From NCBI GenBank assembly GCA_026874595.1, contig CM049313.1, positions 54,398,659 to 54,462,658 on the forward strand: a DNA stretch of 64,000 nucleotides, read 5' to 3'. A model generated the notes under the pieces. That model made no database searches. It was not told the DNA's origin and worked only from the letters and a program-made list of their open reading frames with translations. The position numbers were made by a program, and so were the translations under genes. Positions 1-61,447 of the stretch are shown here, in pieces. The DNA is from Sipunculus nudus (lineage: Eukaryota > Annelida > Sipuncula > Golfingiida > Sipunculidae). Each line of letters opens with the position of its first letter. Positions within the stretch are counted from its first letter, which is position 1.

Positions 1-1022
1 ACACCCCCCCCCCCCCCCCAGAAATAATTCTTTTAGCTAAAATTTCCATCCAAAACCTTCCATCTTTCACATGCAGCTCATCTACCAACAGGGAAAGAAC
101 CATAATTATTTTGAAGTCAACAGGTCAAAGGTCAAGGTCACAGGAGTCCCTTTATTTAATGCCTGTGGATGCATTTTAAGCCAAATCTTTCATACCAATT
201 CTTTGAACTTTTACATATATTTCACCTACTAAGAGGGAGAAGAATCCTATAGATTTTTAGGTCACAAGATCAAAGATCAGGGTCACAGGATCCAATTTTT
301 TTAAAAGGTTGTGAAAACATTTCAAGCTAGACATTTCATTCCAAACTTCCCAGCACTGATATCGCTTCACTGCCAACAGGGGAAAAGACCTGTTGATTTT
401 GAGGTCAAAGGTGAAGTTCACTGCACCCACCTTTTGTGTGGAGTCATTTTCAGGAAACTTTTCAATCTATACCTTCCATTTGTCATATATGGCTTACCTA
501 CCAATAGGGGAAGAAGCCTATCGATGTAGAGTTCAAAAGGTCAAAGGTTAAGGACACATTACTTAATTATTCTAAATGGTTGTGAACATTTTGCAAGTAA
601 AACTGTTCAACCCAAACCTTCAGTCTTTCACATATGCCTCATCTATGCATCACTCAATTTGATTCACACTTCATATTTATAAGCACCCGTTTCTCAATAA
701 TTCTTGCATGGATTTCCTTGATTTTTGCTATATATTTTGATCTTATATTTGCCCTTTGTGGTGTTCCTTTTGAGACTGACAGGTATCAAGCAAGCTATGG
801 GAATAGTTACTGATAGCTTAACAATCAATCATTTTTCCTAAGACCATCAAGTCACTGTGTTTTAACCAGACATAGGTGATGTATATTTCTGTTGTCGTAG
901 AAAATTTCAACATATTGGCAAATTGGTTCTTCAAAATGTGACTGGAAGTTGTGAATCTCAGCCCATGATAAGGTAGGTCATGCTTGGCAGCTGAGCGTCA
1001 TGACCCATGGGTCACTTGTTAA
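1..1022 (+). repeat. Family-A interspersed repeat, internally deleted copy cut by the window edge
   Basis: Bases 20-660 match the body of the complete copies at 17360 and 49417. The match then jumps about 1.2 kb in the consensus (near 660-690) and resumes to the standard 3' end, where CAGCTGAGCGTCATGACC and GGGTCACTTGTT end at about 1019. The opening C-run sits in a cytosine run that also varies in other copies. Bodies of this family contain several AGGTCA half-sites. Confidence 0.8.
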
Positions 1023-1800
1023 ACTATTACATCTTACATCTTACAGTAATATCTCGAAACAGATTATTCATTTTTCTGGATATTGCCAATAGGGGGCGCT
1101 GCACTCGGCTCTCCCCTATATATATTTCTTTGCCATATCTACAAAACTATAAACTTCAATTACAAACACTATGACTTATTGTCTTCTTTTGAATCTACTC
1201 CATAATCTGAGTTAGTCATCTTATCTTATTCTTGTGTCACTTTTTCAGTATGTCTGTCTGTTTGTCAGTGATCCTCTATTTCGCCTGCTTGCTGGATCTT
1301 GCGTCCTACAGTTAGCAGTCTTCAGGCCACAGTTTTTCAGTATGTCTGTCTGTTTGTCAGTGATCCTCAATTTCGCCTGATTGCTGGATCTTGCGTCTTA
1401 CAGTTAGCAATCTTCAGGCCACAGTTTTGAAGGAATCCTTTTGGAATTGGAACATCTCTCACAATAATATATACATCTTGGAACATTTCTTACAATAATA
1501 TCTCAAAAGAAATTTTTAATTTTTGGGATATGGCCGCTAGGGATTGCTGCGGTAGAGCCTCCACACCATATCATTTTTTGGCCATATCTCCGACATTATA
1601 AACTCTACCTTCACTTGTAGTCTGTTATCTCAGGTGTGTCAGTATATTTGTCTGTTTTGAGCTATGTCTGATTTCATGTTCTTTTGTGTGATTTATGTCG
1701 TTCAACAGGCCAAACGTTCCAGGAATCACTTTAAAAGTCATTCAATTGATAGAAAACCGTCAGTTTGTCCTGTTTGTCCATCCGTCTGTCATTTAAGTCC
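1023..1800 (+). repeat. Family-B repeat, leading partial units
   Basis: This stretch has two or three decayed subunits of the array that follows. The phrase 'gtctgtttgtcagtgatcctc' occurs twice within about 85 bases, and there is a GGGGGCGCTGC core at 1091. No complete 5' palindrome is seen before 1800. Confidence 0.7.
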
Positions 1801-3641
1801 GGCAAGCTCTCGACCTATGGTCGTCTAGTTTGTTTGTTTGTTTGTTTGTCTGTCTGTATGTCTGCGCGCTACAAGCCACAATTTTTAAGCAATCGCTCTG
1901 AAAATTTTACATTAAGTGTAAAATCGGTTCTTCTCGGAGCCTATTGTTTTTGGCCATGACCGTTCAAAGGTCAAGGTCAGGGTTACCAAAAACTCTTAAA
2001 ACAGATGTTTCTTCATATCTTCGTCAATAATAATCGTAGCTGCTAAATCTGTAGCTCATTTTATTCCTCATTATGTTAGCTTTCCATGTGCTAGCAAATA
2101 TGTCCGGTCAATGGTTACCATGGTAACGTATTTTTGGGAGAAAATCAGAAAATTCGAAAATTTCCCTCCAAATTTCTCATTTTTTAAGTTAGAGAGCTCT
2201 AGTTTTTTGCATTGTGTAGCATTTTATACGCTCTGTGCTAAATTAATGCAAGTCTCGCAAAATCTCGTGCCATTTGTCGTCAAATGAGACTTTTCGATAT
2301 TTCATTAAATACGATTTAGAGGTCGCAGTTTTACAGCTGAGGTTCTGAAAGTGACAAATTTTCTGTTGTTCTGTATTATCTCGAACTTGTTTTTTCATTT
2401 TTCGAAAATAGCCACCAGGGGGCGTGGTACTGGAAACACTACAACTTATCATTTTTCCACAATATCTTAAAAAATATTAAGCAAATAACAATTTTTTTGT
2501 CGCATCTAAAACTAGGATCATTGCCTTATTCCATCCGACATATAGCCTTGTGTGGCCGTTGCCATGGTTACCAAATTTTTGGGTTAAACTTGACGATCTG
2601 AAAATATGTAGTTTTTGGCTTCTATCTCGGTTAATATTTATGTTTTAAGGGTCTAGTTTTTTGCGTACGGCTGCTTTCTCTTGGTTCTAAGCCATTTAAT
2701 TGCTAGTCTCGTCAAATCTCGCTCGGTTTATTGCCAAACGAGAAATTACGAGATTTCACAGAAATGCTTATAGCTTGATCACGGTTAATGCTAAAATGGA
2801 GTAGTTTTCAGCATTTGGTAGCATTTCAGAAGCTGGACATGATTATACTGCAAATCTCGCCACATCTCGTATCATCTCCCGCCAAACGAGAATATTTTAG
2901 ATTTCAAACAAATGTCTTTATCTCGGTCATTTTCATGCTAGATATTTTATTTTTCTATTGTTCAAGAATCATTTGACTAGTTTTAAGTGACAAAAGTGAA
3001 TGTCTCGTCATATCTCGCACCATTTCTTGTCAAACGAGAACATGGGACCATTCAAAGAAACGCCTATAATTGTGTTATTTTTATGTGGAAGACTTAAAGT
3101 TTTCAGCATTTGATAGCGTCTAACATTCTCGGTCACATTATATGATTATATTGTAAGTTTCTTCAAATCTTGCATCGTTTTTCTTCAAATAAAAAAATTA
3201 CATCCAATTGCCATGACCATAAGCGATGGCAGTATGTGATAGTAAATGTCGGCAGGGGCATTACATTTGACAGTTGGAGCTTTGTTCTATGGATGTGCGA
3301 TGGTCCATGAAAAGACACAATTCAGATTGATCCCACCTGTGCTTTTGGTGGTGGCCTCTTTTCATGGTTTGTATGGCCGCACTTTGAGGATTTCAATGTA
3401 TTGAGAGCTTAATGACCTGTTGTAAAGGATAATCCCTTTAAAAAAAACAAAAACAAAGAGAGAGGCTCCCCGAAATGTTACTGAATGCAGAGATAGTGTT
3501 GCTGGTAAGCACAATCACAACTATAATATCAGGGACGGATCCCCGATTTGCAGTTGGGTGTGTCAAATCAGGGACGGATATCCGGTTTGCAGTTGGGGGT
3601 AGGGGTTAAATATAAATTATACATCATATAAAAATAATAAA

Positions 3642-3715
<74 letters not shown>

Positions 3716-5640
3716 TAACATACTAATAAAATTTCGCGAAGCTTACTTTTATCATTTTGGAAAATAACCACCAGATGGCGCTGCAGTAATCATTATTGTA
3801 CCATATCTCCAAAACTATAAACTGTGTCACAACTTTGATTGTAGCATCTGAAACTAGATTTAATGCGTTTATCCTCTTGGTTGCTCTTTCATATTCTTCC
3901 CTTACCATGGTACCTTATGTAGGTTACAATTCATGAAATTCAAAGTATGAAGAATTATTCGAATAGACTGTGGCTTATTATTATTCATGCTTTCAATTTT
4001 GTATGGCATGAGTACACGACCTTCACCTGGAGTTTTTTTTTCTGTGTGTCTGGCTGTTTGTCTGTCTACTCGTCTGCGACTTTTGAAATTCAGTAAAACC
4101 ACATAAAGATGTGTTTATGTTTTCCAAACAATAGGGGTTGGTCATTTGACCTCTTCCCCAAAAATTTTTTGCCTTTCTGCTGTTTGTTGTCTGTTAGTTT
4201 GACTTTCTAATTTCTACTTCCGGTAAGTCCCGACCTATGGTCGTCTAGTCTGTTTGTCTGTCATCTCTCTACAGGTCTCAATTTTGCACCAATCACTTTC
4301 AATCTTACACACTTTATAGATAATCAAAAATGCAAGAAGCCTATTGTTTTTGGTCAATATAGGTCAAAGGTTAAGGTCAAGGTCATCAAAACTTCTCAAA
4401 ACGGTGTTTTCTTCATATCTTTGTCACTATAAGTCGTATCTTCTTCAAACATAGCTCATTTTAAACGTCATGCCAAGGCCAGTCATCTGGTGTGTAGCTG
4501 ACTCAAATTTGCCGTAACTATGGTTACGAATTTTTGGGAAAAAAATCATGATAATCGAAAATAAGGGGCCTTATTTTTCTAACTTTGGCAGTTTTACAGC
4601 TAGAGAGGTCTAGTTTTTTGCATCAGGTAGCATTTAACAAATACTGCAAGATTTTATTACAGGTCTCGCGATATCTCGTATAATATCTCGTCAAACGAGA
4701 TATTTCGAGATTTCAGTAATCTTGCCCTGGAGGTCACAGTTTTGCAGGAATCCTTTTGAAACTGACATAGCGTAAGTCCTACACTATTATCTCGAAACAG
4801 TTTTTCCATTTTTTGAATGCAGCCGCTAGGTGGCGCTGTATGCAAACCTCCCCAACATATCATGTTTTGGCGATATCTCCAAAACTGTGAGCCTCAATTA
4901 CATAAACTATAGCTTATTTTCTTCCTCTGAGTCTTTTCTAAATCCTGGTGGAGTCATTTTGACTCAATCTTGAGTCACTTTGTCAGTGTGTCCGTCTGTT
5001 TCTCAGTTTTCATCAAACTCGCCTGCTTACCGGTTATGGCGTCTCACATATAGCATTCTACAGCTCACAGTTTTGAAAGAATCCTTTTAAAATTATTACA
5101 TCTTATGTCTTACACTAAAATCTCGAAACGAATTTTTTATTTTCCAGATAAGGCCGCTAGGGGGCGGTGCACTCAAACTTCCACAACATATCATTTTTTG
5201 GCCATATCTCCAAAAGTATAAACCGCATTTACATAAACTATAGCTTATTATCTTCCTCTGAGGTTTCTCCATCACATGATTAAGTCAACTGGTCTCAATC
5301 TTGAGTCACTTTGTCTGTGTGTCCGTCTGTTTCTCAATTGTCCTCAATTTCGCCTGCTTCCAGGTGCTTGCGTCTCACATGTAGCATTCTACTGGACAGT
5401 TTTGAAGGAATCGTTTTGTAAATTACACTTGTCATATATCATGATGATATCTGGAAGTCCTATGTTTATTATTCAAATAAGTCAAAGGTCAAGGACAAGG
5501 TGATCAAAATATATCAAAATCTTATTTTCTTTAGAACTTTGTTAATATTGGTTCTTTCTTCACAAACTATGGATTATTTTCTTTCACTTTTATACTGCTC
5601 GTTCATCTGACTAACTTTACATCATTTCCGGCAAGCGCGT
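1801..5640 (+). repeat. Family-B large unit 1 (~4 kb)
   Basis: The unit starts at a boundary motif (GGCAAGCTCTCGACC, TATGGTCGTCTAG) followed by TTTG/TCTG microsatellite. The order inside is: AGGTCA-rich segment, a CCATGG-centred palindrome (GTTACCATGGTAAC, 2115), several TCTCG/CGAGA hairpin segments, CTCF-like cores at 2412, 3768, 4822 and 5154, an (ATA)n microsatellite, and an internal second boundary motif at about 4216. Unit 2 matches it in the same order, about 4.0 kb downstream. The short open frames here are not genes. Confidence 0.75.
3640..3716 (+). repeat. (AAT)n microsatellite
   Basis: An almost pure AAT/ATA run lies inside family-B unit 1. The equivalent place in unit 2 (about 7540) has only a short AT stretch, so the expansion is private to this unit. 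Confidence 0.95.
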
Positions 5641-8600
5641 GACCTCAGGTCATCTAGTTTGTCTGTTTGTCTGTCTGTCTGTTTGTTGCTTGCCGAAATC
5701 AAAGATTTCGGCAAGCATGTTGGTCAGTTGTGTATGTCTGTTTGTTGCTTGCCGGAATCAAAGATTTCGGCAAGCATATTGCTCAGTTGCGTATGTCTGT
5801 TTGTTGCTTGCCGGAATCAAAGATTCGGCAAGCATGTTCATCACCCGCGTATGTTTGTTTGTCTGTTTGTCTGTTTGTCTGTCTGTCTGTGCTCTACTGG
5901 CCACAATTTTGCACCAATCGTTCTGAAACTTATAGATAAAGTGTAAGGTCTGTTCTCCTCGGAGCCTATTGTTTTTGGTTATGATCGGCATAGTCAAGGT
6001 CAGGGTCACCAAAAAACCTAAAATATTTATTTTCTTCATATCTTCGTCAATAATAATCGTAGCCGCATAATCTGTAGCTCATTTTATTCCTCTTTATGTT
6101 AGCTTTCCAAGTACTAGCAAATTTTTCCGGTCAATGGTTACCATGGTAACGTATTTTTGGGGGGAAATCAGAAAAATCGAAAATTTAACTCCAAATTTCT
6201 CATTTTTTAAGTTAGAGTGCTCTAGTTTTTTGCATTGTGTAGCATTTAATATGTTCTATGCAAAATTAATGGAAGTCTCGCAAAATCTCGTGCTATTTGT
6301 CGTCAAATGAGACTTTTCGAGATTTCATTAAATACGATTTAGAGGTGGCAGTTTTACAGCGAAGGTTCTGAAAGTGACATATTTTCTGTTTTCCTGTATT
6401 ATCTCGAACTTGTTTTTTCATTTTTTGAAAATAGCCACCAGGGGACCAGAAACACTACAACTTATCATTCTTCCGCAATATCTAAAAAAATATTAAGCAT
6501 ATAACAAATTTTTTTGTCGCATCTAAAACAAGGATCATTGCCTTATTCCTTCGTACATATAGCCTTGTGCTGCGGTTACCATGGTTACCAAATTTTGGGG
6601 TAAAACTTGACAATCTGAAAACATGATGTTTTTGGCGTTTATCTCTGTTAATATTTATGCTACAAGGGTCTAGTTTTTGCATAAGGCAGCATTCCCTTGG
6701 TTCTAAGTCATTAAGTTGAAATCTCGTCAAATCTCGCTCGGTTTTTCGTCAAACGAGAAATTACGAGATTTCACAGAAATGCTTATAACCTGATCACCTT
6801 TTAAGCTAAAGAGCAGTTGTTTTCAGCATTTGGTAGCTTTTTTAGAGCTTAATATGAATGAATTGCAAATCTCGCCCAATCTCGCATCATCTCCAACCAA
6901 ACGAGAAATTCGAGATTTTAAACAAATATCTGTATCTCGGCTATTTTAATGCTACAAGGGTCTAGTTTGTTATTGTTGCAGGATGTTTCAGTAGAATCAA
7001 GTGACACAAGTGAATATCTCGTCAAATCTCGCACCTTTTGTCGTCAAACGAGAGCAGGGGACCATTTAAACAAATGCCTATAATGCTGTCATTTTTTACA
7101 CTACAGACATATAGTTTTCAGCATGTGACAGCGTCTGACACTCTCAGTCACATTATGTGTTTATATAGCATTTCTCGTCAAATGTCGCCTCGTTTTTTAT
7201 CAAATGATGAAGATACATCCAATTGCCGTGAGCACAAGTGGCTTCAGCGATGGCCGGTAAGTGCCGGCAAGGCCGTTACAGTTGCAAGTTGGAGTGGGCG
7301 GTCGTCCATGAATTTCACAAAGCAGCATTGAAAAGAGGACAAAAGCCGCTACATTTGAATTGAACACACCTGTTATTTTCATTGTGTCCCCTTGTGCGGC
7401 TACTGGTGTTGCCAGTTAGCACTGGCAAATCTTTCAAACCATGGACGGATCCCCGATTTTGAAGTTGGGTGTGTCAAAATATGGGCGGATCCCTGGTTTA
7501 GCAGTTGGGGGGCAGGGGTTAAATTTTAATTATACATCAAATATTAATAATAAAAAAATATCTGGGAACTTATTTTTTTTTAGAAAATAGCCGCCAGATG
7601 GCGCTGCAGCAATCATTATTGTGCCATATCTCCAAAACTATACACACTGTCACAACACTGATTGCAGCATCTCATACTAGATTTAATGCGTTTATCCTCC
7701 TGGGGACTCTGTCATATTCTGCAGGGGTTAAATATAATTTTACATCAAATATATATAATTAAATAATATCTGGGAACTTATTTTTTCCTTTTAGAAAAAA
7801 GCCGCTAGATGGGGCTGAAGCAATCATTATTGTGCCATATTGTGTTATCTATAAAACTATAGACAGTGTCACAACATTCATTGCAGCATCTGAAACTAGA
7901 TTTAATGCGTTTATCCTCGTCGGGACTCTGTCATATTCTTCCATTACAATGGTGACCTAAAATACGTTCCAATTATATTCTTTTTCTTGAAATTCAAAAT
8001 ATGGAGTTTTATTCTAATAGACTGTTTTCTATTCTCCATGACAGGAGTACATGGCCTTCACATGGAGTTTTTTTCCCCGTCTGCCTGTCTGTTTTTCTGT
8101 CTATTCATCTGCGACTTTTGAAAATCAGCATAACCACAAAAAAATGGTGCTTCTGTTTCCGCCATAATTGGGGTAATTCATTTGACCAGTTCCGAATGTA
8201 ACCTGCCTATCTGCTGTATGTTGTCTCCTAGTTTGACTTTCTTATTTCCGCTTCCGGCAAGCGTTCGACCTCTGGTCGTCTAGTCTATTTGTCTGTCTGT
8301 TTGTTTGTTTGTCTGCACTCTCCTGGCCACAATTTTGCCACAATCACCTTAAAACTTTCAGAGATGATGGAGAATTAAATTTCCAGGTGCCCTATGGTTT
8401 TTGGTAAAAATAGGTCAAAGGTCAAGGTCAAGGTCATCAAAACTTCTCAAAACGGTTTTTTCTTCATATCTTTGTGACTATTAGTCCTATCTACTTCAAC
8501 AATAGCTCATTTTAATCGTCATTCTAAGGCCTGTCATCTGGTGTGTACCTGACTCAAATTTGCCGTAACCATGGTTACAAATTTTGGGGGAAAAGTCATG

Positions 8601-10187
8601 ATATTCGAATATAAGGGCTCTTATTTTTCTAACTTTGTCAGTTTTAAAGCTAGTGTGATCTAGTTTTTTGCATCAGGTAGCATTCAACTAGTACTACAAG
8701 ATTTTATTACAAGTTTTGCAGTATCTCGTAAAATATCTTGTGAATAGAGATATTTCGAGATTTCATTCATCTTGCGCCAAAGGCCAAATTATTGCAGGAA
8801 TCTTTCTGAAACTGACATATTATAAGTCCTACACTAGTATGTTGAAATCATTTTTTCATTTTTTGAATAGGGCCGCTAGGGGGCGCTGGATGCAAACCTC
8901 CCGAACATATCATATTTTGGCCATATCTCCAAAATTATAAGCCTCAATTACATAAACTATAGCTTATTTTCTTCCTTTGAGTTTTCTCCATAACCTAGTG
9001 TAGTCATCTGGTCACAATTTTGTGACACTTTGTCAGTGTGTCTGTCTGTTTGTCAGTTGTCCTCAAATTCGCCTGCTTGCTATTGCTCCTCACATATAGC
9101 ATTCTAAAGGGCACAGTTTTGAAAGAATCCTTTTGAAACTATTACATCTTAAGTCTTACACTAATATCTCGAAAACAATTTTTCATTTTCCAGATATGGC
9201 TGCTAGGGGGCGCTGAACTCGAACCTCTCCCAACATATCATGCTTTGGCAATATCTCCAAAACTATAAACCTCAGTTACATAAACTGTAGTTTTTTTCTT
9301 CCTTTGAGTCTTCTCCATAACCTGGAGTAGTCATCTGGACTCAATTTTGAGTCACTTTGTCAGTGTTTTCGTCTGTTTGTCAGTTGTCCTCAAATTCGCC
9401 TGCTTGTTGGCTCTTGCGTCTCACATATAGCATTCTGTAGGCCACAGTTTTGACGGAATCCTTTTGAAACTAATACATCTTATGTCTTACACTAATATCT
9501 AGAAATAAATTTTTCATTTTCCGGATATGGCCACTAGTGGGCGCTGCACACGACCCCCACACACATACCATTGTATTGGCCATATCTCTACACCCAAAGC
9601 CTCAGTTACATAAACTATAGCTTATTTTCTTCCTTTGAGTCTTCTCCATAACCTGATTAAGGCATCTGGTTTCAATCTTCTGTCACTTTGTCAGTGTGTC
9701 CACCTGTTTGTCCGTTATCCTCAAAGTCGCCTGCTTGCTGGTTCTTACGCCTTACATATAGCATTCTACAGGCTTTGACGGAATCCTTTTGAAACTGGGA
9801 CATCTCATGGTATACACTAATAATACGAAACGCATTTGTCGTCTTCGGAATATGTCTGCTAGAGGGCGCTACAGTCGAGCCTCCCTAGTATATCATTAAT
9901 TCGCCATACCTCCAAAATTATAAATCTAAATTACATAAATTATAACTCATTTTCTTCCTTTGAATCTTCTCAATCACCAGGTTATGTCATCTGGTGTCAA
10001 TCTTGTCTCACAAAGTCCGTATGTCTGTCTGTTCGTCTTTTGTTGTCAGCTTTGTCTGCTTGCCTGTTTTTTTGTCTCATATGTCATTCTACGGGCCACA
10101 TATTCTCAGCAATGTCCCTGAGAGTCATTCCATTAATAGAAAACCGACAATATGTTCTGTCTGTCCGTCTGTGTTTCACTTCCGATT
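5641..10187 (+). repeat. Family-B large unit 2 (~4 kb plus extra subunits)
   Basis: It repeats unit 1 in order: microsatellite, GGTCAATGGTTACCATGG region (6128), TCTCG hairpins, 'gatccccgattt' (7447), 'cttcacatggag' (8053), boundary motif (8254), then body subunits. Offsets to unit 1 are 3.8-4.05 kb. The end carries four ~329-bp subunits with cores at 8873, 9199, 9531 and 9856, where unit 1 has two, so the subunit count has expanded. Confidence 0.75.
5683..5850 (+). repeat. 59-bp tandem repeat with perfect hairpins, three copies
   Basis: Each unit has arms CTTGCCGAAATC and GATTTCGGCAAG around an AAA loop (5689-5715), or a near variant (5748-5774, 5807-5832), followed by TGTATGTCTGTTTG. The arm sequence CGGCAAGC is also the family-B boundary motif. 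Confidence 0.9.
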
Positions 10188-11715
10188 TCCGGCAAGCGTT
10201 CGATCTATGGTCGTCTAGTTTGTTTGTCTGCACTCTCCTGGCCACAATTTTGCCACAATCACCTTGAAACTTTCAGAGATGATTGACAACCAAAATTCTA
10301 GGTGTCCTATTATTTTTTGGTCTAATAAGGTCAAAGGTCAAGGTCATCAAAACTTCTTAAAACGGTTTTTTCTTCATATCTTTCTGACTATTAGTCGTAT
10401 CTACTTCAACGATAGCTCGTTTTAATCGTCATTCCAAGGCCTGTCATCTGGTTGGTAGCTGACTCAAATTTGCCGTAACCATGGGTACAAAATTTGGGGT
10501 AAAAGTCACAATATTCGAAAATAAGGGGTCTTATTTTTCTAAATTGGCCAGTTTTAAGGCTAGAGAGATCTAGTATTTTGCATCAGGTAGCATTCAACTA
10601 GTACTACAAGATTTTATTAAAGGCTTGCAGTATCTCGTAAATATCTCGTGAATAGAGATATTTCGAGATTTCATTCATCTTGCGCCAAAGGCCACATTAT
10701 TGCAGGAAAATTGCACACGACCCTGACACACATATCATTACATTAGCCATATCTCTAAAACCCAAAGCCTCAATTACACAATTTATAGCTTATTTTTTTC
10801 CTCTGAGTCTTCTCCATAATCTGATAATGTCGTCTTGTCTCAATCTTGTGTCACTTTGTCAGTGTGTCAGTCTGTTTGTCAGTTGTCCTCAAATTCGCCT
10901 GCTTGCTGGTTCTTGCGTCTCACATATAGCATTCTACAGGCCACAGTCTTTAAAGAAGCATTTGAAAACTGATGCATATTATGTTTTACAGAAATATCTC
11001 AAAACTTATATTTCATTTTCCGGATATGGCCGCTAGGTGGCGCTGCACATGACCCTCGCACACATATCATTATATTGACCATATCTCTAAAACCCAAAGC
11101 CTCAATTACAGAAACTATGGTTTATTTTCTTTCCCTGAGTCTTCTCCATGACCTAATAATGTAATCTGGTCTCAATCTTGTGTCGCTTTGTCAGTGTGTC
11201 TGTCTGTTTGTCAGTTGTCCTCAAATTCGCCTGCTTGCTGGTTTTTGCGTCTCATATATAGCATTCTACAGGCCACAGTTTTTTCAGGAATCCTTTTAAA
11301 ACTGGTACATCTTATGTGTTACACTTATATCTCAAAAAAGATTTTATATTTCCCGGATATAGCCACTAGGGGGCCCTGCACTTTCACCGCCCCAACATAT
11401 CATGTTTTGCCATATCTCCAAAATTATAAACCTTATCTACATAAACTATCGCTAATTTTGCTATTCTTTACCTTCGGCACTTTTGTCTGGTAATCTGTTA
11501 TCACAGATGTGTCAATATGTCTATCTGTTTGTCTTTTGTGGTCAGTTTTGTCTGCTTCCTCGTTGTTTTGTCTGTTATGTCATTTTACAGGCCACAACTT
11601 CTCAGCAAACGCTGAGGGTCATTCAAATAATAGAAAACCCACCGTATGTTCTGTCTGTCCGTCTGTCTCTCATTTCAACTTCCGGCAAGCGCTCGACCTC
11701 TGGTCGTCTAGTTTG
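10188..11715 (+). repeat. Family-B partial unit 3
   Basis: It begins with a boundary motif (10188-10220), continues with the AGGTCA segment and the 'catcaggtagcatt' segment, then ~333-bp subunits with cores at 11030 and 11363, and ends at another boundary motif (11680-11715). The hairpin-rich half of a full unit is missing. Confidence 0.75.
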
Positions 11716-12804
11716 TTTATATATGAAACAAAGTCAAAATACACAGCATCATTAACTTGATGTACTCTATAGGTTTCATTATACTATGTATTGTATCAGC
11801 TATCATATATGGTCCAGGGGCTCGATAGCAGCCAGCTGACGTGTCAACATGTATCATGTTTCAAGGCCAGCGATTCCTACAGTAGCTTGCCATTCTGTTA
11901 CATTAAGATAAATGTAGTAGCATTATTATTTTTTTTAATGTGTTTTTATTACTAGTCATTTCAGGGTGTATGTAGTTGTTTATTCGTGTCAAGGTATCAA
12001 TGAAATTAATTACATTTTTCAGATGTGCACCACCGGTATGCGTAAAAGAGGTGGTCAGCCTTTTTCCTTCCTGTTACAATAAATAGATAAATTAAGCATG
12101 GGAATAAGAAAGCAATAAGCAGTGATAAATGAAAAAAAAACTTCGAAACTAATGTTGGAACGATATTCAATATATATGCTGATGCGAATATCAAACGAAT
12201 CAGTGACTACACATTGGTGGCATTCGATTCCCCCCCCCCCCCCCATTTTTTTTTTAAAACTGATAAAAAAAATCAGTATTATGCAGTTATCACTCAGGTA
12301 TTAAATGAGTAATTTTTTTTTCATATTGGTGTTACTAATACAAATTTCAAGAATCACGAGTTTATAGTCGGCCGACCAACCCTATGAAATGTGCCTCGTT
12401 TAAAAGACTTTAGATACTATTTTTGTTCCAGTCTGGAAACCATGCTATAAAAATGTTTAAGACCATTTTTCAAGATTTCAAAATCATCCATTTGACAAAG
12501 GACACAGTTCAAGGTCAAGTAGGCCTGTAGTCCTGATAATAAAAATGAGCTTTTATTGAGATATATTGATTTTTGCTAATGTTATAAATGATAAAAACAT
12601 ATTGTGAAAATTAATACAAATGACTCCTTGATTATTGGGTTTCTGTTGAAAATAGCAACGCTTTTGATCTTCATTTAGATTCAGGTTGCAGTCTTATGTT
12701 CGATGGCATAATTTTGTGTATGGACGCTTGGAAGAGTTATTTCTGTATTGTAAAACAATTTTTTCATTCAAAGTTAAAAACCGTTGGTAAAAATAAACAT
12801 CAGT
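11716..12804. other. No recognisable gene
   Basis: AT-rich unique sequence. A C-run (12231-12243) followed by a T-run is the only low-complexity feature. Short open frames on both strands show no domain or codon pattern. Confidence 0.5.
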
Positions 12805-15562
12805 CTAGTTTCCGTATCAATCAGCGAGTTTTGTTGAAAATCCATCCAGCAAACAAAAAAACAAGAGACATGACAGGCAAAAAAAAAAATACACGCAAAA
12901 AACGCGAGTCTTAAGGAGGCACAACTTGGATAGTGAATGTAAATAACCTTTTTAACTTCAAATTCCAAGGTCATATGGGGCAAAATATACTATAATAGTA
13001 AAAAACGGAGGCAGCTCAATTAACTAATGACGCATGAGCCATGACGCACAGCAGATAAGGTTGACTTCTCAATGCCTATAATTAGCAGCTGTATATAGTA
13101 GCATGTCTGAAGAATATATTGGCCAATTTTCCTTTAAACTGTTGGACAGATACCATAGGCTATATATGTTTGCGGAGATAATATTGAGATATGATATTTC
13201 TAGGTTCCATTCTAACTATTAAACTTAGAAAGGAACAATCATGTGGCTTCTTTGGAGACATAATATGTAAATTATTGAGAAATATTATATAAAATCTGTA
13301 TTATATATATATATATGTGTGTGTGTGTGTTATCTGTATTATTCAGATATGTGAAAAAAGTGATACATGCATATATACATACAAACATACATACAAATAT
13401 CATGTATATAAAAATATGTAAAACAGATTGTAATATATTTTGTAACACGTGTAAATCTTACTTCCTTGATTGCAAGTTTCCGCGCTTGCGCAATGTTTCA
13501 ATACACTTAACCAAAACTATGATTAAATCAAGGGAAAAGCGATACCGAACCTTTTAGCCGGAACGGCTTTCTGTAAGAACCTTTAACACTCAGCAATATG
13601 CTACTTATAGCTGAAGGTAATATCCATAATCCGTACTCTAGGTACCTTAAATGGTTGTTATGGGTACATGACTTAAATGAGATTTCAGTTATGCACATGG
13701 GGATGCTCTTACGGAAAAGCTTAGCAAGGGTACATTAGGATATTTGCTAAATTAACAGAGAAAATGGAGGCAATTAAGCAAATTTCTAACCAATAATGGC
13801 TAATAAACTAATCTGGAGCAAAAAAAAAATAATAATGTTGGAGTGCTCTTATTAGGAAATTGTTGAGCCTGCCATACTATCACGTTTATCTTTTGCCACA
13901 TGACCCTGTCCTTGACCTTATTGATATGAGAAAAGTTTCCTATGATTATTGTCCCAAATAAATTTTTGTGAATATTGTTTGGATAACTTCCATTGGCAAA
14001 TCTGTCAAATCTTAAACGACAACGCCGCTCAACGCCCCGGCAACAGTTTTAAAAGGCCAAAGTCTGTGGCACAGGCTCAGAGAGAATGGCCCGACAGGTG
14101 GTTTGCACTGATCTTGTGCACATAGGGTGCCCGGCCAGTGAGCTGTAATTCAACGAAATGTAACAACATTGGCTCCGTGCACACCTCGCTGGCTGATTTC
14201 CGTTTTGCTGGCACACAGATACATGGCTACGCTAACATGGTCTTAATGTCATTATCGAATCGGTCGATGATGCGAGAACGTAGATGGAGCAATTAAAACT
14301 GAACTATTTTTTACTAAAAGGTATCCACTTCAGCTCAGTGCACTTGAACCGCACTTGACGGGCAGCTATAGGCGGAGCCATGATGCATGTCGAGTGTTTG
14401 TTAACTGGCATTTGGTTGGCCTTTAGACATCGACCTACCACCAGGTGTCTAAATGTATCGTAATGGTCACCCAGGCAGAAGGGAAATCAGAAGCTTCTTT
14501 AGAAGCGCAAGATTTAAGCTGCCTCGGGAGCGTACTTACACCAGAGGTCAGATCAAAGGTCAGGTCATGGGTGAACAGAGATCGTGCCTCTGCAACATGG
14601 CTGTGACAGTGACGGTCTTCAGCTCTTCTCTTTATGATAAAATGTTGTTATATCATATATAACAAAACCAGGACAGTCCACATGTATGTCCACTCAAAAA
14701 ATAAAGGATTTATAGGTAGAGTGAACACAGTTTAAGCTGTATCTTATTCTTAATGACTCTTCTATTCGTTCCTTCTGATATATCAGAAGGACCGCTACGA
14801 TATTTCATAAGAACATATTCAAGGCTGAGTAAGGCCCGGGCCACCCAGTGTGTAATTCTCAGCCTTGCACCAAGTCAACTTGAATGGATGCAAGGTAGCC
14901 AGGGGCTGCGGAGCGCCACCGTGTGTCTGTGTAAGAGACTAGGATACAACGCAATTGCAAACGAAGATTCAAGCTATGAGCCTTTTAAGCCTCCTTTAAG
15001 AAAGTTACTGGAGAGCATCATTCGCTGATTCGTCGCACATGTATTGGTATTGCAATGTGTACTAAGTTGAATGGGAAATATTCAAGGAAATATATGCATC
15101 AATATTGATTCAAGCGCCCGTGACTCTGAATTCATTGTTCAAATCTACTGATACCAAACAACATCAGCTGGGGCCTTGGGCTAACGGGGCGCCACTGTGT
15201 GTCCGTGTAGGAAACAACTCATGGCTTGTACGAAGCTGCTTTGTACGCATCACATTTGACAATGGTTGAACCCGCGCCAACACCCTGACGATCCATGCAA
15301 AGGGCCCGAGCAACAGCCGATGAAGCAAACGAACTGGAGATTTGCAGCTTCCGGGTATCAGTCAGCCAGGGATCGGAGAACGTGAGCTGAACTGATCGGT
15401 GAGTCAGTATACCGAAGACACCTAGCCTCAGCTGTTCCAGCCTCGCATGCAGGATTTCAAATCAATTCACCGCATTCGCTCGATTTAACGTTAAGTGTGG
15501 GTGATGCAAAATGGGCTATTATCAGGCGCATTGACTAGCACAGTACACACGCGTGAGGCTGG
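12805..15562 (+). repeat. Segmental duplication, copy 1 (compact)
   Basis: It matches blocks in copy 2 in the same order and orientation: 12805-13290 with 52855-53315, 13290-13640 with 56225-56605, 14878-15000 with 56612-56722, 15015-15265 with 61203-61440, and 15262-15562 with 62413-62705. The stretch 13640-14877 has no partner in copy 2. No protein gene was found; the conserved 'gcgccaccgtgtgtcygtgt' occurs twice within it. Confidence 0.8.
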
Positions 15563-17359: not shown

Positions 17360-19792
17360 TTTTTAGCTCAGCTGACTTTCAGTCATGCTTTGCAATAGCG
17401 ATGGGTCTTTGTCCGTCGTCCTTCCGTCTGCTCGTCCGGCCGTCTGGCCGTCCGTCCGTCCGTTAGCAGGGCACTAATAGTAACCGTAAGGGCCAGGATC
17501 ATGAACCCTATGCAGTCATAGAGGTTTTATAAAGGTCTCCTTGCAAACCTGAAATTAGGTCACTGCGACCCATATTCTCCGAGTTACGGGGTGCGTTTGC
17601 ACCCCCCAGAATAAATTCTTACAGCCAAAATTTTCATCCCACACATACCATCTTTCACATATGGCTCACCTACCAACAGGGGAAAAACCATAATTATTTG
17701 AGGTCACAAGGTCAAAGGTCACGCTCACAGGACCCACTTTTTTTAAAAGCTTGTGGATGCATTTAATCCAAACCTTTCATCCATCCTAAACCTTTGTTCT
17801 TTCACATATTACTCACATACCAATTGGCAGAAGAATCCTATAGATTTTGAGGTCACAAGGCCAAAGGTCAAGGTCACAGGATCCACTTCTTTAAAAAGGC
17901 TGTGGACGCATTTCAAGCTAGACTTTTCTTCCAAACCTTCCAGCATTGACATATCGCTTCTCTGCCAACAGGGGAAAAGACCTGTTGATTTTGAGGTCAA
18001 AGGTCAAGTTCACGGCACCCACTTCTTATGTGGAGTCATATTAAGGCAAACTATTTAACCTATACCTTCCACCTGTCTTATTTGGCCTGCCAGTAGGGGA
18101 AGAACCATATTGATGTTGAGTTCAAAAGGTCAGAGGTCAAGGTCACAATATTCAATTGTTCTAAATGCTTGTGAGCATATTTCAAGTGTAACTGTTCAAC
18201 CCAAACCTTCAGTCTTTCACATATGCCACATCTATGCATCACTCAGTTTGACTCAAACTTCATATTTATGAGTCTTTTTGCTTGAATAAATAACTTATTG
18301 ATTTTGGGGTCAGCTGGTCAGCAGGTTAAAGGTTGCAGGTCAAAGTTATTCACCCATTGGTTGCCAAGTAATTACACCAGATTTAAGTGGTTAGTAGTTA
18401 CCCATCATTTAGAAAGAATCCAGTTGATATATGGGCAAAAGGCCAAGGTCATAGGTCAGGGATGTTCACAATTACTTATTTATAGACCATCTATATTTTT
18501 CTTGTATATATAACCATCCCACTCCAGCTGGTACATCTCCCTGTGTGGCTGTAATTGTGAGTGACACTGGTGACATATGACTCCCTTTTGTATCAGCCTA
18601 TTAAGTGATAAGGCTCAGTGATAAAGTACCTCGTTACTTCATAACAAAAACACTGTTGTTGGAATACTTCAGCCAGGCATTAAGACTATGAGAGTTAAGT
18701 GTTAAGGTTTAGCTACTGATTTATAAGATGATGGGAACATTTTGCAGTTTATTTTATGGAATCCTAGCAATAAACTTAGTTTCCTAGATATCTGAATATT
18801 TTAATATATATCACCACATATAAAAGCAAGTGTTTGTTCTCATAATATGTGGATGTGTACCTTGATTTAGGATGGCTTTTTGTTTTATTTCAAGACTCTT
18901 AGTGATGCTTTCTGCATTTCTTTTCTTTCAGGTTTGGCAGTTTACCTACCCTGCTGACCCCATTGAAAAGCAGAGTGATAATAAAAAATATTGGACTTAC
19001 ACTTTTTACAATTGCATATCTATAAATCTGATATGAGGGCCTGGACATGCCTTTTGAATTATTTTGGGCATTCATTACTGGATAATTTGCCCCAAGTTTG
19101 GTCTCTTATTGGAGAATGTGGGATATCAAATGTCATACTTGTCAGAAATCCATTATGTCTGCCAGTTAGCCACCTTTGAAATTCTTTCTTCAGTGCAGTT
19201 TCAGTAATTTTTCTTTAATGTTTGGTCCGATTTAGAGAATGTTTGTTGTCTGATTTCAGACTTGTCAGAAGTCCAATATGGCCACCAGGCAACCATCTTT
19301 TAATTCCTTTTGATCATATTATCTCAAGAACAGTTAAAGTGAATGCAGTTGGATGTATATTTATGTTATCTTGTAAAGGATTGGGTCAAATATTTCTGAA
19401 TAAATATTACCATCATTTATAAAAGTGCAGTACAGTTGGCTTGTATTGAATAAAAATTCATGCAGAAGCAACTGTTTCTGAATAATTCTTGCATGTATTT
19501 CCTTGATTTTTGCTATATATTTTGATCTTATATTTGCCCTTTGTGGTGTTCCTTTGAGACTGACAGGTTTCAAGCAAGCTGTTGGAATAGTTCCTGATAG
19601 CTTAACAATCATGCATTTTCCTCAGACCATCAATTCACTGTGTTTTAACCAGACATAGGTGAAATATATTTCTGTTGTCATAGAAAATTTTCAACAAATT
19701 GGTTCTTCAAAATTTGACTGGAAGTTGTGAATCTCCATGATGTCACAGGTCATGCTTGGCAGCTGAGCGTCATGACCCATGGGTCACTTGTT
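17360..19792 (+). repeat. Family-A interspersed repeat, complete copy 1
   Basis: It starts TTTTTAGCTCAGCTGAC and contains a GTCC/GTCT microsatellite (17400-17465). Six or more segments with 'ccttycaycttycacata' and AGGTCA clusters follow, then a non-repetitive ~1.2-kb centre. It ends CAGCTGAGCGTCATGACC, then the palindrome TGACCCATGGGTCA and CTTGTT. It is nearly collinear with 49417-51855 (2433 against 2439 bp). It has no long open frame, so it is non-autonomous. Confidence 0.88.
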
Positions 19793-20479: not shown

Positions 20480-21195
20480 CAGAAACGCGGGGCCCTCTCA
20501 AGACCATTGTCCGACCACATATATTTTTTTAAATTTTTAATGACTTTTTTTAAATCCTAAACATTTTATATGAAATGCAAGATTTAACTGGTGACCCAAA
20601 AATCAAAAGGAACCTTCCCCCATTGGAAGTTGCGCCACGTGGAAGACGGAATGTTTTGGACGAAGAAGTTTTATAAAGAAGTTGGTCCTGTGACCTTAAC
20701 CTTTGACGTCATGACCCCAAAATCTAAAGGGTCCTCACATTATTTGTGGGTCATATAGAAGTCAAGCTTGAAACTAATATGTAAATCCAAACTGTTTCTA
20801 ACTGTTATCCAAAAAGTTACTATCGGGAAACAAATATGCGAACAGATGGAACCTGTGACTTAGCCTTTGACCTTGTGACCCCAAATTCAATTAGGTTCTT
20901 CCCCTTTTTGTAGGTCGGCTATATATGGAAGATGGAAGGTTTGAGATGGAAATTTTGGCTTAAAATGCGTCCACAAGCTTTCTAAATATGTGGTTCTCTT
21001 GGCCCCTGACCTCACGACCCCAAAATTATTTTTGCGTTAGTGGTGAGCCAAATATAATCAAGTTTGAAATTCATATGTCACTCCAAACTGGAGTTTTCAT
21101 CAGGAAACAAATTTGACGGACATACAGAAGGAGGAGCAGACGGACGGACAGGGTGATTAATATAGGGCTTCCGCGAATTCAAGCGGGGCCCTAAT
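20480..21195 (+). repeat. Interspersed repeat bounded by GCGGGGCCCT motifs
   Basis: It begins at 'aacgcggggccctctcaag' and ends at 'gaattcaagcggggcccta'. Between them, 'gtgaccttaacctttgac' and 'gaccccaaaat' phrases recur three times at about 160-190-bp spacing, and 'gacggacggacag' lies near the 3' end. No coding frame. Confidence 0.6.
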
Positions 21196-25300: not shown

Positions 25301-28300
25301 TGGTAATTATCTATCTGAAATAGTTCGCAGCTTTTTTTAAAGATCATCTTTCAGCCCTCAATCATTATAGTTAACCAGTATCATAACTGTCAATACTGCA
25401 TCTACGGATCTATAAAAATAGAAGTAAGACAATGGTTTATTGCGATTTTCTTCCATAAATTTCCTGTACATTATTAACAAGCAAAATAATGTATAATTCA
25501 TGAAATGTTCCAATACATCTAGTAACAAATGGTCATGAATTCGATTTCAATACAGTGTGTTCTAAATCTTCTTTACCAGAAAGCATATACTTTGCACAAA
25601 TTGCAAACATTGACTTAACCCACTGAGACATTAGCACTTTAGCAGATTTAATTTACTTGCAGGCATTTAGTTTTCACATTCTCGGCTTGACACTTCTTGA
25701 TCTGCGGGACCTGACCAGTACTTCTACAGAGCGTATCGCGACCCTTTTCTTATGCAGGGGATTAGGAGGTCTGGCCGGCACTTTGGTGTCAGGGAAGCTG
25801 TTGGATAAAATGAACTACCGGATTCTCTTCTTTGTCCCTTTGTTTGTGAATGGAATAATACTTTGCATAATCCCATGGTCAACATCCTTCTGGGCAACCG
25901 CGGTCCTTCACGGTATAATGGGACTCTTCTTATCTGCACCAGCTTTAGGTAAGTTGCAGCCTTAATATATGTCCTTTTAATATATCTTGGTTACTACATA
26001 TTAGCTTATCATCTTCAGCTTTGGAATTAAACTCAATAAAAAATCAATTAAACTGAAGTAATGACCCTTCGACTCCCTGTCAAACAGACACTCTTGTTAA
26101 ATAGGGACCTACGCCATGTAAAATAAAAATGATATAAATGATTTGAAGTTGTTAAACCAATCTAAACCAGGCATATCAGTTCCATGGATGTGTCAAGCAA
26201 ATGAATCAACGTCACTTTTAACCATTTATAAAGCTACCGTAAAACCAGGCCTATCAGTTCCATGCACGTGCCAAGCAAATGAATCAATGTCACTTTTTAC
26301 CATTTATAAAGCTACCGTCAAACCAGGCCTATCAGTTCCATGCACGTGCCAAGCAAATGAATCAGTGTCACTTTTACCATTTATAAAGCTACCCTCATAC
26401 CAGGCCTATCAGTTCCATGCACGTGCCAAGCAAATGAATCAGTGTCACTTTTACCATTTATAAAGCTACCGTCAAACCAGGCCTACAGTTCCATGCATGT
26501 GAAGCAAATGAATCAGTGTCACTTTTAACCATTCATAAAGCTACCGTCAAACCAGGCCTATCAGTTCCATGCACGTGCCAAGCAAATGAATCAGTGTCAC
26601 TTTTAACCATTTATAAAGCTACCGTCAAACCAGGCCTGTCAGTTCCATGGACGTGCCAAGCAAATGAATCAATGTTACTTTTTAGCCCTCAGCCCTTAGG
26701 CTGATGGGCTATTGTCGCCAACCAAGTTGTCCGTCCGCCCGTCGGAAATTAATGAACATTGAATATTTTTAACGTCTCCGTTACTTAAGAAACACTAACA
26801 ATGAACTATCATATAGAATAAAGGTATATATTTATATGAAGGGCGATATTTATTGTGTTATATTGTCCGGCCTTCGTGGGTAATAGTACATGTTGACGTA
26901 CAAACGTAATTTGTGAAAATGACCGGTGTTATTATCGTTACTTATGTGGTCTTATTTGATACTTTATTTTATTTTGCCATATTTGGCATTAAAAAAAAAA
27001 AATTATGTCGAATATGATAAAATTGGCACTGGTGTATTACTGATTAACAGGAAACCACTCACCACTATATAGCTTAATTGACCCGGAAAACACCGCCGGG
27101 TTTGGTCTCCGAACATCAAAGGGAAGTGTCGCGGCGGTGTGCACATTAAAAGGATTATGAGCCGTTATATAGCCGCACTTGCATGCTATAACTGCGATAT
27201 CATAACATCAGCGTAATGTTTTGTTGGATTTTTTATGAAATTCACTATTAACTGTAAATAATCAGATTTAATCGACATCTTTTTATTTTGTTTTATCCTA
27301 CTTACAACTGAACATTGCATCTTGCTTGAGAGTAGCGGCACGGTTCGACGATTCTAGAAGGAAGACGCCAGATCGACATTAATTTAGGAGTTTGATTTTC
27401 AGGAATTTTTACCCGTGTCTTTTAAATCAAATTATTTAAATCAACCAACCCTTCCCTGGGTTTTATAACCCTGCCATTATACCAGCAAGGCAAGATTTTA
27501 AAATTAAGATAGTAAATTATTTTCATGGCATTTTAGGGTGGATTAAAACGGTTAACTCAGAGATAAGCTTCAAATCAATGAGAAAATCATTAACAAGTTC
27601 AGAAATATTCAACAATTCTGTAGGGTCAACAAAACCTATATTGTAGAGCATCCGATATATTGCTTATGTGGCTGTCCAATACGACTTTCGGATACGAAAA
27701 TTCCACGGTCGGTTACCAAAAATATTGTTCGGGTTTGGTGTGAAACCGCCTTTAGCGTCACCGCTTGGTTGTATTTAGGAGCGGGAGAATCCGCACTAAC
27801 ACATTTCTATAAGGAAGATTAGGCACGTCGTACATCATTTTTGATTACGGAATCTTTTAGTTTTTAAACTCAAATGTCTTTGGAGACTACAACATGGAAC
27901 AGTGTTCATGTTTTTTTAACATATTGTATATTATAGATACTGTTTTGTATGTAAATAATGAATCTCTAGTGACAATGTATGATATTATGTATGTGCTTTT
28001 GCTTGATGCCTTTATTTGTTAATTTGTGGGTGAGACGATGCATGGACAGCACTGCATGATATTTATGTGTACAGTGTTCAAACAAATATTCATCTGAACT
28101 TAATACATGTATAAAATAAAACTATATAGCACTACCTTCCTTGTTAATGAGATTAAAATATAATACAATACAGAAAAAAATATATCGCAAAACATCAAAT
28201 CCGCATGTGAATCCACAGGGTATTATAATTCTGTCTTCTGTATTAAAACAATATAAATCCAGGCATAAGTACAATACAAGTGTGGTATCAATGTCTGTCT

Positions 28301-61202: not shown

Positions 61203-61447
61203 TTATTCGCCGATTCATGGCACATTATTGGTATTACAATGCGACTAAGTTGGTTGGAAAATATTTATGGAAATATATGCATCAATATTGATTCAAGCGC
61301 CCGTGACTCAGAAATCTTTGTTCAAATCTACTGATACCTACAACATCGGCTGGGACCTTGGGGTAACAGGGCGCCACCGTGTGTCCGTGTAGGAAACTAC
61401 TCATGGCTTGCCCGAAGCTGCTTTGCACACATCACAGTGGTTGAACC

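What the first reader, a model, noticed from the sequence alone, without database searches (positions are those of the whole stretch)
1086..11379. Thirteen same-orientation CTCF-like motifs in a tandem repeat array
The core CCNCTAGGGGGCGCTGC or a close variant sits at 1086, 2412, 3768, 4822, 5154, 7591, 7801, 8873, 9199, 9531, 9856, 11030 and 11363, all on the + strand. CCACCAGATGGCGC at 3769-3781 fits the published CTCF core CCASYAGRKGGCRS at every base, and most others differ at one or two positions. Within subunit runs the spacing is 325-333 bases. In mammals, SINE B2 repeats are known to have spread CTCF sites; a molluscan tandem equivalent would be new to me. Whether CTCF binds here is inference.
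Basis: partly seen in the sequence, partly recalled or inferred. Interest (0 to 1): 0.78.

Follow-up and report, generated by a model that had tools for sequence, protein, structure and literature searches.

The report
Helentron array seeded with CTCF-like sites
The row of CTCF-like motifs is the inside of a mobile element that has copied thousands of CTCF-type sequences around this animal's genome, which makes it a candidate shaper of chromosome folding, though binding has not been shown.

Summary
In detail: 13 CTCF-like cores lie on the + strand within a base of the stated places, plus two decayed ones. In this region 11 sites reach 14 bits on +, none on -; shuffles give 0.11. One orientation is expected from head-to-tail copying and is not independent evidence. 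The array (1015-11718) is the central-repeat part of a non-autonomous Helentron (HINE). Its 5' palindrome and its 3' "TTCCGGCAAGC + hairpin + CTAGT" end bound copies at other loci; the 3' end occurs 2056 times genome-wide, control 0. Modules found by their flanks alone number 6186 (control 2); of 57 distinct strings among the first 100 listed, 51 carry a core of at least 15 bits. The genome has an 11-finger CTCF gene with 15 of 20 core-contact residues as in human and 1613 dispersed copies of a strict CTCF word (control 13). Core changes spare the CTCF score, but other boxes of the unit are nearly as conserved, and rank correlation with matrix information is not significant. Likely a Helentron that spreads CTCF-type sites; occupancy and function are untested.

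The parts
1015..11718 (+). HINE-type array: head-to-tail, partly truncated element copies with ~331-bp and related central repeats
   Evidence: self-comparison, boundaries shared with other loci
1083..1101 (+). CTCF-like core, A-type subunit, 22.8 bits
1531..1549 (+). decayed core, A-type subunit, 11.1 bits (not in the finding)
2409..2427 (+). CTCF-like core, B-type subunit, 22.1 bits
3765..3783 (+). CTCF-like core, C-type subunit, 24.1 bits, perfect to CCASYAGRKGGCRS
4820..4838 (+). CTCF-like core, A-type, 23.0 bits
5151..5169 (+). CTCF-like core, A-type, 23.2 bits
6432..6450 (+). core broken by a deletion, B-type, 13.3 bits (not in the finding)
7588..7606 (+). CTCF-like core, C-type, 22.7 bits
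7799..7817 (+). weak core, C-type, 12.0 bits
8870..8888 (+). CTCF-like core, A-type, 24.4 bits
9197..9215 (+). CTCF-like core, A-type, 16.9 bits
9528..9546 (+). CTCF-like core, A-type, 22.4 bits
9853..9871 (+). weak core, A-type, 12.9 bits
11027..11045 (+). CTCF-like core, A-type, 25.0 bits (best in window)
11360..11378 (+). CTCF-like core, A-type, 21.8 bits
5686..5833 (+). three tandem copies (59-bp period) of the HINE 5' end: subTIR GCTTGCCGGAA plus its inverted partner
5852..5890 (+). TGTC microsatellite next to the 5' ends
1797..1829 (+). HINE 3' end: subTIR, hairpin GACCTATGGTC, CTAGT
4217..4249 (+). HINE 3' end
5626..5658 (+). HINE 3' end; a 5' end begins at 5686 (head-to-tail joint)
8252..8284 (+). 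HINE 3' end
10187..10219 (+). HINE 3' end
11680..11712 (+). terminal HINE 3' end; array homology stops at 11718

Best explanation
The array is a head-to-tail pile of non-autonomous Helentrons (HINEs) with central ~331-bp and related repeats. A typical subunit carries one CTCF-type site in the element's sense orientation, so an insertion drops several same-facing sites at a new place (2 to 13 of at least 12 bits in six bounded copies). SHOWN: the HINE ends, thousands of copies, the CTCF-like core in flank-selected copies, a CTCF gene and a dispersed CTCF word in the same genome. INFERRED: copying by rolling-circle transposition plus unequal exchange; binding of this animal's CTCF to at least the better cores; and, if bound, a one-sided stop for cohesin. 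By the convergent rule known from vertebrates, + strand sites here would stop cohesin arriving from the right (higher window coordinates). Whether this locus is a boundary is open.
For: HINE ends and subTIRs match the definition in PMC7492417 (passages). 3' end 2056 genome-wide, control 0. Flank-selected modules 6186, control 2; of 57 distinct strings among the first 100 listed, 51 have a core of at least 15 bits, 38 at least 20; core pairwise identity 0.82 against 0.57 for the spacers on either side, p = 7e-5. Core substitutions cost 66 bits in all where 119-132 are expected; 0 of 5000 permuted matrices do as well. CTCF gene: PDB best match CTCF, 368 bits, best non-CTCF 246; ZF3-6 75% identical, next best locus 52%. 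Helix positions -1, 2, 3, 6 identical in ZF3-5 (12 of 12), 15 of 20 in ZF3-7. Dispersed CCASYAGRKGGCAG 1613, control 13; the CCG form used by most cores 996, control 41; among the listed places on C1:1-24.63 Mb, 1 of 40 and 5 of 21 lie within 2 kb of a listed HINE mark (unlisted, diverged HINE copies would be missed).
Against: Other boxes of the unit are nearly as conserved as the core. Without copies holding the search 14-mer, the core window is 12th of 201 (22 copies) or 3rd of 201 (31 copies). Matrix information does not predict conservation: rho 0.09, -0.06 and 0.05 for rates, 0.28, p 0.24, or 0.43, p 0.11, without CpG columns. 26 of 165 copies found by the upstream flank score under 15 bits, and 6 of 57 flank-selected cores have an indel. 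ZF6 differs at three of four contact positions. The CT form (CT for CC), found in part of the cores, is rarer in the dispersed word (537, control 42). No occupancy, methylation or contact data. By chance about 6500 sites of at least 15 bits and 311 of at least 20 are expected in a genome of this size.
Confidence: 0.6

Rival explanations
1. Passenger motif: the HINE central repeat happens to hold a CTCF-like stretch from an old host capture; copies are silenced or methylated, CTCF does not bind in vivo, and the core is conserved only because many copies are young and homogenised.
For: Other boxes of the unit are nearly as conserved; regular 1274-bp spacing in arrays suggests recent copying; matrix information does not predict conservation.
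Against: Substitutions cost less CTCF score than random ones; diverged A, B and C subunits keep the core while spacers differ; the CCG form is also common away from listed HINE marks.
Confidence: 0.3
2. The core is the target of another C2H2 protein, for example a transposon-silencing zinc finger from the large clusters of this genome, or serves the element's own replication.
For: Many C2H2 frames on C16, C7, C9 and other contigs; several conserved boxes besides the core suggest more than one bound factor or an element function.
Against: The 14-base CTCF word is also enriched singly and away from HINE marks, with every degenerate letter used, which fits a host-wide factor such as CTCF; no link to a particular other protein was found or looked for.
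Confidence: 0.1
3. The arms around the core (GATATGGCC / GGCCATATC) form a conserved hairpin with the core in its loop, an RNA or cruciform element.
For: The two arms pair in the consensus; 75% of cells paired at register 0 against 25-46% in slid registers.
Against: The common variants break pairs rather than restore them (for example G-C to T-C or A-C); no Rfam match at gathering thresholds.
Confidence: 0.02

Closest known systems
Cg_HINE elements of the Pacific oyster and bivalve Pearl (PMC7492417, passages read)
   Same: 11-12 bp subTIRs, inverted partner in the left flank, palindrome after the right subTIR, GTCY-type microsatellite, central satellite-like repeats in one orientation
   Different: Here the central repeats are ~331 bp and carry a CTCF-like core; the passages read do not mention CTCF; sequence relation to the oyster families was not tested, and T-rich insertion was not tested properly here
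SINE B2 CTCF expansion in rodents (Schmidt et al. 2012, recalled; cited in PMC6598467 and PMC12221973)
   Same: A mobile element spreads CTCF-type sites through a genome
   Different: B2 is a retroposon with ChIP proof (recalled); this is a DNA element with several same-facing sites per insertion and no occupancy data
DXZ4 macrosatellite (PMC6985041, abstract and passages)
   Same: Tandem units carrying CTCF sites that act in one direction
   Different: A large X-linked array at one locus with proven CTCF binding and loops; here many separate places on C1 and C8
ISX Helitron of Drosophila miranda (through PMC6598467, passages)
   Same: A Helitron family spreads binding sites for a chromosome-scale regulator
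   Different: Dosage-compensation motif on a neo-X, functionally shown; not CTCF
Mutator TIR motifs at placozoan loop anchors (PMC12221973, passages)
   Same: A DNA transposon's sequence coincides with the motif of loop anchors in an invertebrate
   Different: Different transposon, no CTCF outside bilaterians, and contact maps exist there

Membership tests
HINE (non-autonomous Helentron) | subterminal inverted repeats of 11-12 bp at both ends | tested here: met
   GCTTGCCGGAA at 5' ends, TTCCGGCAAGC at 3' ends
HINE (non-autonomous Helentron) | inverted partner beside the left subTIR | tested here: met
   GCTTGCCGGAA-TCAAAGA-TTTCGGCAAGC type at 5686, 5745, 5804 and at many fetched loci
HINE (non-autonomous Helentron) | short palindrome after the right subTIR at the 3' end | tested here: met
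   GACCTMTGGTC then GTCTAGT; six in the window with up to 3 substitutions; 2056 exact genome-wide
HINE (non-autonomous Helentron) | microsatellite and central satellite-like repeats in one fixed orientation | tested here: met
   GTCT/GTTT repeats. Of 171 sites of at least 15 bits, 163 lie on the commoner strand of their stretch: 152 of 160 in the 20 loci (L022 is a 2:2 tie, counted as 2 of 4) and 11 of 11 in the window array. Of the other 8, five lie in an inverted copy in L015. At 12 bits some antisense hits occur inside copies
HINE (non-autonomous Helentron) | insertion in T-rich sites without target-site duplication | tested here: inconclusive
   flanks of several bounded copies look T-rich; no empty-site search and no systematic test
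HINE (non-autonomous Helentron) | autonomous partner with the same ends | tested here: inconclusive
   143 Helitron_like_N matches, some in frames over 2000 aa; in the one region looked at (L034+L035) the close matches to HINE ends lie outside the 2250-aa frame, beyond its 3' side, with the intact 3' end on the opposite strand
CTCF binding site | match to the vertebrate CTCF matrix | tested here: met
   matrix counts recalled
CTCF binding site | a CTCF protein with conserved core-reading fingers in the same genome | tested here: met
   L029/L036, 11 fingers; 15 of 20 contact residues, 5 differing in ZF6 and ZF7
CTCF binding site | core under constraint that follows the CTCF matrix | tested here: inconclusive
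   positive; rank correlation not significant and other boxes nearly equal
CTCF binding site | occupancy in vivo | not testable with these tools
   no ChIP, ATAC or Hi-C data here
SINE (B2-like) | short retroposed unit with RNA polymerase III promoter | not tested
   set aside because of the Helentron-type ends; no RNA polymerase III promoter scan was run
DXZ4-like macrosatellite | one large array at a single locus with CTCF bound in each unit | tested here: not met
   copies lie at many places along C1 and on C8; binding not testable

The most novel reading that the evidence does not exclude
An invertebrate (probably bivalve) genome has had its set of oriented CTCF sites enlarged by a Helentron: thousands of HINE insertions, each a small cluster of same-facing sites, act as portable one-way cohesin stops, some of them domain boundaries, so that chromosome folding evolves by rolling-circle transposition.
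Probability: 0.2. Interest if true: 0.85.

Novelty: new variant of a known kind. Interest (0 to 1): 0.64.

Why it matters
How 3D genome structure is made in spiralians is little studied: the 2023 reviews PMC10658182 and PMC10658181 (passages) name one squid study with a CTCF-like motif at domain borders, without motif direction. A transposon that sets down same-facing clusters of CTCF-type sites, in a genome with a CTCF gene and a dispersed CTCF word, gives a natural experiment. Insertions are directional, numerous and can be dated, so loop extrusion with a direction rule could be tested outside vertebrates. If CTCF does not bind them, they are an equally useful set of thousands of near-perfect sites that stay unbound.

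Tried and rejected
Hairpin around the core: variants break the pairs; no Rfam family at gathering thresholds. Finding copies in IMG/VR by a 22-base box: none. Relating core variability to matrix information by rank: not significant. A first score simulation used 14 cores picked by hand and is not counted as evidence; searches use the 30 distinct ungapped cores of the 57 strings (the six strings with indels left out). differ in observed sum (-65.9 and -81.9) because root and tie rule of the tree differ. Autonomous partner: one candidate region examined, no shared ends seen. Coding content of the array: one of its frames (9863-10264) gave no Pfam match; the other frames were not searched. Loci L009-L028 were chosen because they hold the exact 14-mer, so core conservation there is biased upward; the flank-selected list avoids this, but it is the first 100 places of 6186, all on C1. 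The reversed-pattern controls for the dispersed word differ in CpG content from the pattern, so the 100-fold ratio is probably somewhat inflated (inference). In some searches only 150 candidates were scored (of 1978 and 2889), so a second CTCF gene is not excluded.
Full report
WHAT WAS CLAIMED AND WHAT IS THERE. The finding lists 13 same-strand CTCF-like cores between 1086 and 11379. All are present on the + strand. One has no mismatch to CCASYAGRKGGCRS, nine have one and three have two; the perfect one is at 3768-3781. With the vertebrate CTCF matrix (counts recalled), 11 sites of at least 14 bits lie on + and none on - in positions 1001-11500; shuffles give 0.11 on both strands together. The best is 25.0 bits (11027). 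Two decayed cores at 1531 and 6432 belong to the same series.

ANATOMY OF THE ARRAY. Self-comparison shows one block of head-to-tail homology from 1015 to 11718; the listed matches of this block (60 bases or more) are all inside it. Three related subunit types carry the core: A (~331 bp apart in runs), B (2409, 6432) and C (3765, 7588, 7799). They share boxes around the core, more or less decayed (a TATCTC box, a TTTTTCATTTT box, a CATATCAT box, a CCATATCTCCAAAACTAT box), while the spacers differ. Long stretches repeat at a super-period of about 3.7-4.0 kb, for example 1828-3279 with 5853-7294 at 84%.

WHAT CARRIES IT. The exact word CTAGGGGGCGCTGC occurs 4137 times, reversed control 0. I fetched 20 stretches of 10 kb around listed places on C1. 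Repeat homology begins and ends at the same sequences in independent places: TTGCTTGCCGGAATCAAAGATTTCGGCAAGC (with variants) on the left and TTCCGGCAAGCG..CGACCTMTGGTCGTCTAGT on the right. These are marks given for HINEs in PMC7492417: subTIRs, an inverted partner on the left, a palindrome after the right subTIR, a short microsatellite and one-way central repeats (passages). L009, L013, L016, L017, L019 and L021 each hold a copy with a 5' end on the left and a 3' end on the right, some with further ends inside; they carry 13, 6, 2, 5, 5 and 5 sense sites of at least 12 bits. The window holds six 3' ends and a triple 5' end at 5686-5833, so it is a pile of copies, mostly without their own 5' ends; its left edge (1015) meets another dispersed repeat at a joint also seen in L014, L023 and L025. 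Genome-wide there are 2056 exact 3' ends, control 0. The genome also has 143 or more Helitron_like_N matches, some in frames over 2000 aa; one was looked at and did not show the same ends.

IS THE CORE SPECIAL? Among 165 copies found by the upstream flank in the window and 20 loci, 139 score at least 15 bits, but the loci were chosen by the core. So I searched by two flanking boxes with a free gap: 6186 matches, control 2. Of 57 distinct strings among the first 100 places, 51 have a core of at least 15 bits, 38 of at least 20, and 6 have an indel in the core; pairwise identity is 0.82 in the core and 0.57 in the spacers beside it. Substitutions among the 30 distinct ungapped cores lower the CTCF score by 66 bits in all; random changes lower it by 119-132 (0, 2 and 6 of 1000 simulations do as well, rising with the CpG weight), and no permuted matrix of 5000 does as well. 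Against this: in 55 dereplicated copies the core is among the slowest windows (mean rate 0.64 against 0.99 in the flank), but boxes near -41 and +46 follow at about 0.75; without exact-14-mer copies (31) the rates are 0.81 and 1.01, p 0.02, and the core ranks 3rd of 201, level with those boxes. By pairwise identity the core ranks 1st of 201 in 40 dereplicated copies and 12th of 201 in the 22 without the 14-mer. Rank correlation with matrix information is near zero and 0.28 (p 0.24). So the unit as a whole has conserved boxes, the core is one of them, and its changes lean towards CTCF-tolerated letters.

COULD CTCF OF THIS ANIMAL BIND IT? One locus (C11:67037743-67038510) matches human CTCF fingers with 54% identity over 226 residues and 75% over ZF3-6, the next best locus having 52%. 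It has eleven fingers in one frame (counted by eye), and its best PDB match is CTCF at 368 bits against 246 for the best other protein. The base-reading positions of ZF3, ZF4 and ZF5 are identical to human (12 of 12); in ZF7 two of four are, in ZF6 one of four. The word CCASYAGRKGGCAG, which none of the 57 HINE strings contains, occurs 1613 times, control 13; of the 40 listed on C1:1-24.63 Mb, 1 lies within 2 kb of a listed HINE mark, and the median gap is 412 kb. So a CTCF word is in dispersed use. The CCG form, as in most HINE cores and rare in the human matrix, occurs 996 times, control 41, with 5 of 21 near HINE marks; the CTR form is rarer (537, control 42). This fits the HINE core being readable by this animal's CTCF, and the CTGC copies being weaker.

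HOW IT MOST LIKELY WORKS. A Helentron copies itself by a rolling circle (established for the superfamily; inferred here), tandem ends give head-to-tail piles, and unequal exchange changes subunit number. A landing sets several CTCF-type sites facing one way. If CTCF binds, vertebrate work on tandem sites (PMC7087399, abstract) and DXZ4 (PMC6985041, passages) predicts a directional stop for cohesin; here it would face the right-hand side of the window. None of this last step is shown.

WHAT IS KNOWN. TE-spread CTCF sites, CTCF macrosatellites and bivalve HINEs are each known. The held library has no paper with both "Helentron" and "CTCF", and among the 15 listed of 23 papers with Helitron, CTCF and binding sites, none reports this in its title or abstract start. 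The library lacks most subscription papers, so this is not proof of absence. Spiralian data on CTCF are thin: squid domain borders (PMC9023564, passages), open chromatin in an annelid (PMC7854359, passages), loop anchors in coleoids (PMC12407938, passages).

VERDICT. Observation confirmed; interpretation partly supported; new variant of a known kind.

Noticed in passing
window 1-680, 17602-18272, 49655-50321 (+), 20671-20988 (-): A dispersed repeat with ~146-bp tandem subunits rich in GGTCAAAGGTCAAGGTCA (nuclear-receptor-like half-sites, recalled) and a weak CCAACAGGGGAAGA word; the first + place is 83% and 89% alike to the other two over about 670 bases, with shorter pieces on -.
   Followed up: partly
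G000 C1:65.12-65.64 Mb: Of the first 100 listed 3' ends, 31 fall in this half megabase and 30 of them are on the - strand, suggesting a large one-way HINE array (the list stops there).
   Followed up: no
L014, L015, L023, L025, L026, L027: Units repeated every 1264-1274 bp with usually two CTCF-like cores in each, mostly equal in score from unit to unit, perhaps a young sub-array.
   Followed up: partly
G000 C16, C7, C9, C6, C11: Many C2H2 zinc-finger frames, most on C16, turned up as weaker matches to CTCF; possible transposon-silencing families.
   Followed up: no
window 14911-14929, 56635-56653, 61369-61387 (-): Three weak minus-strand CTCF-like hits; the first two lie in a 124-bp repeat 90% alike, the third shares only the short ACACGGTGGCGC stretch.
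   Followed up: partly
window 25627-25965 and 31468-32601 (+): Exon-like frames of what looks like a membrane transporter: the first has a sub-threshold MFS_1 match (23.6 bits, cut-off 33.4), the second no Pfam match.
   Followed up: partly
window 39044-40667: A second tandem array with a 337-bp unit, 4.8 copies, 88% matches; no homology to the HINE array was listed.
   Followed up: no
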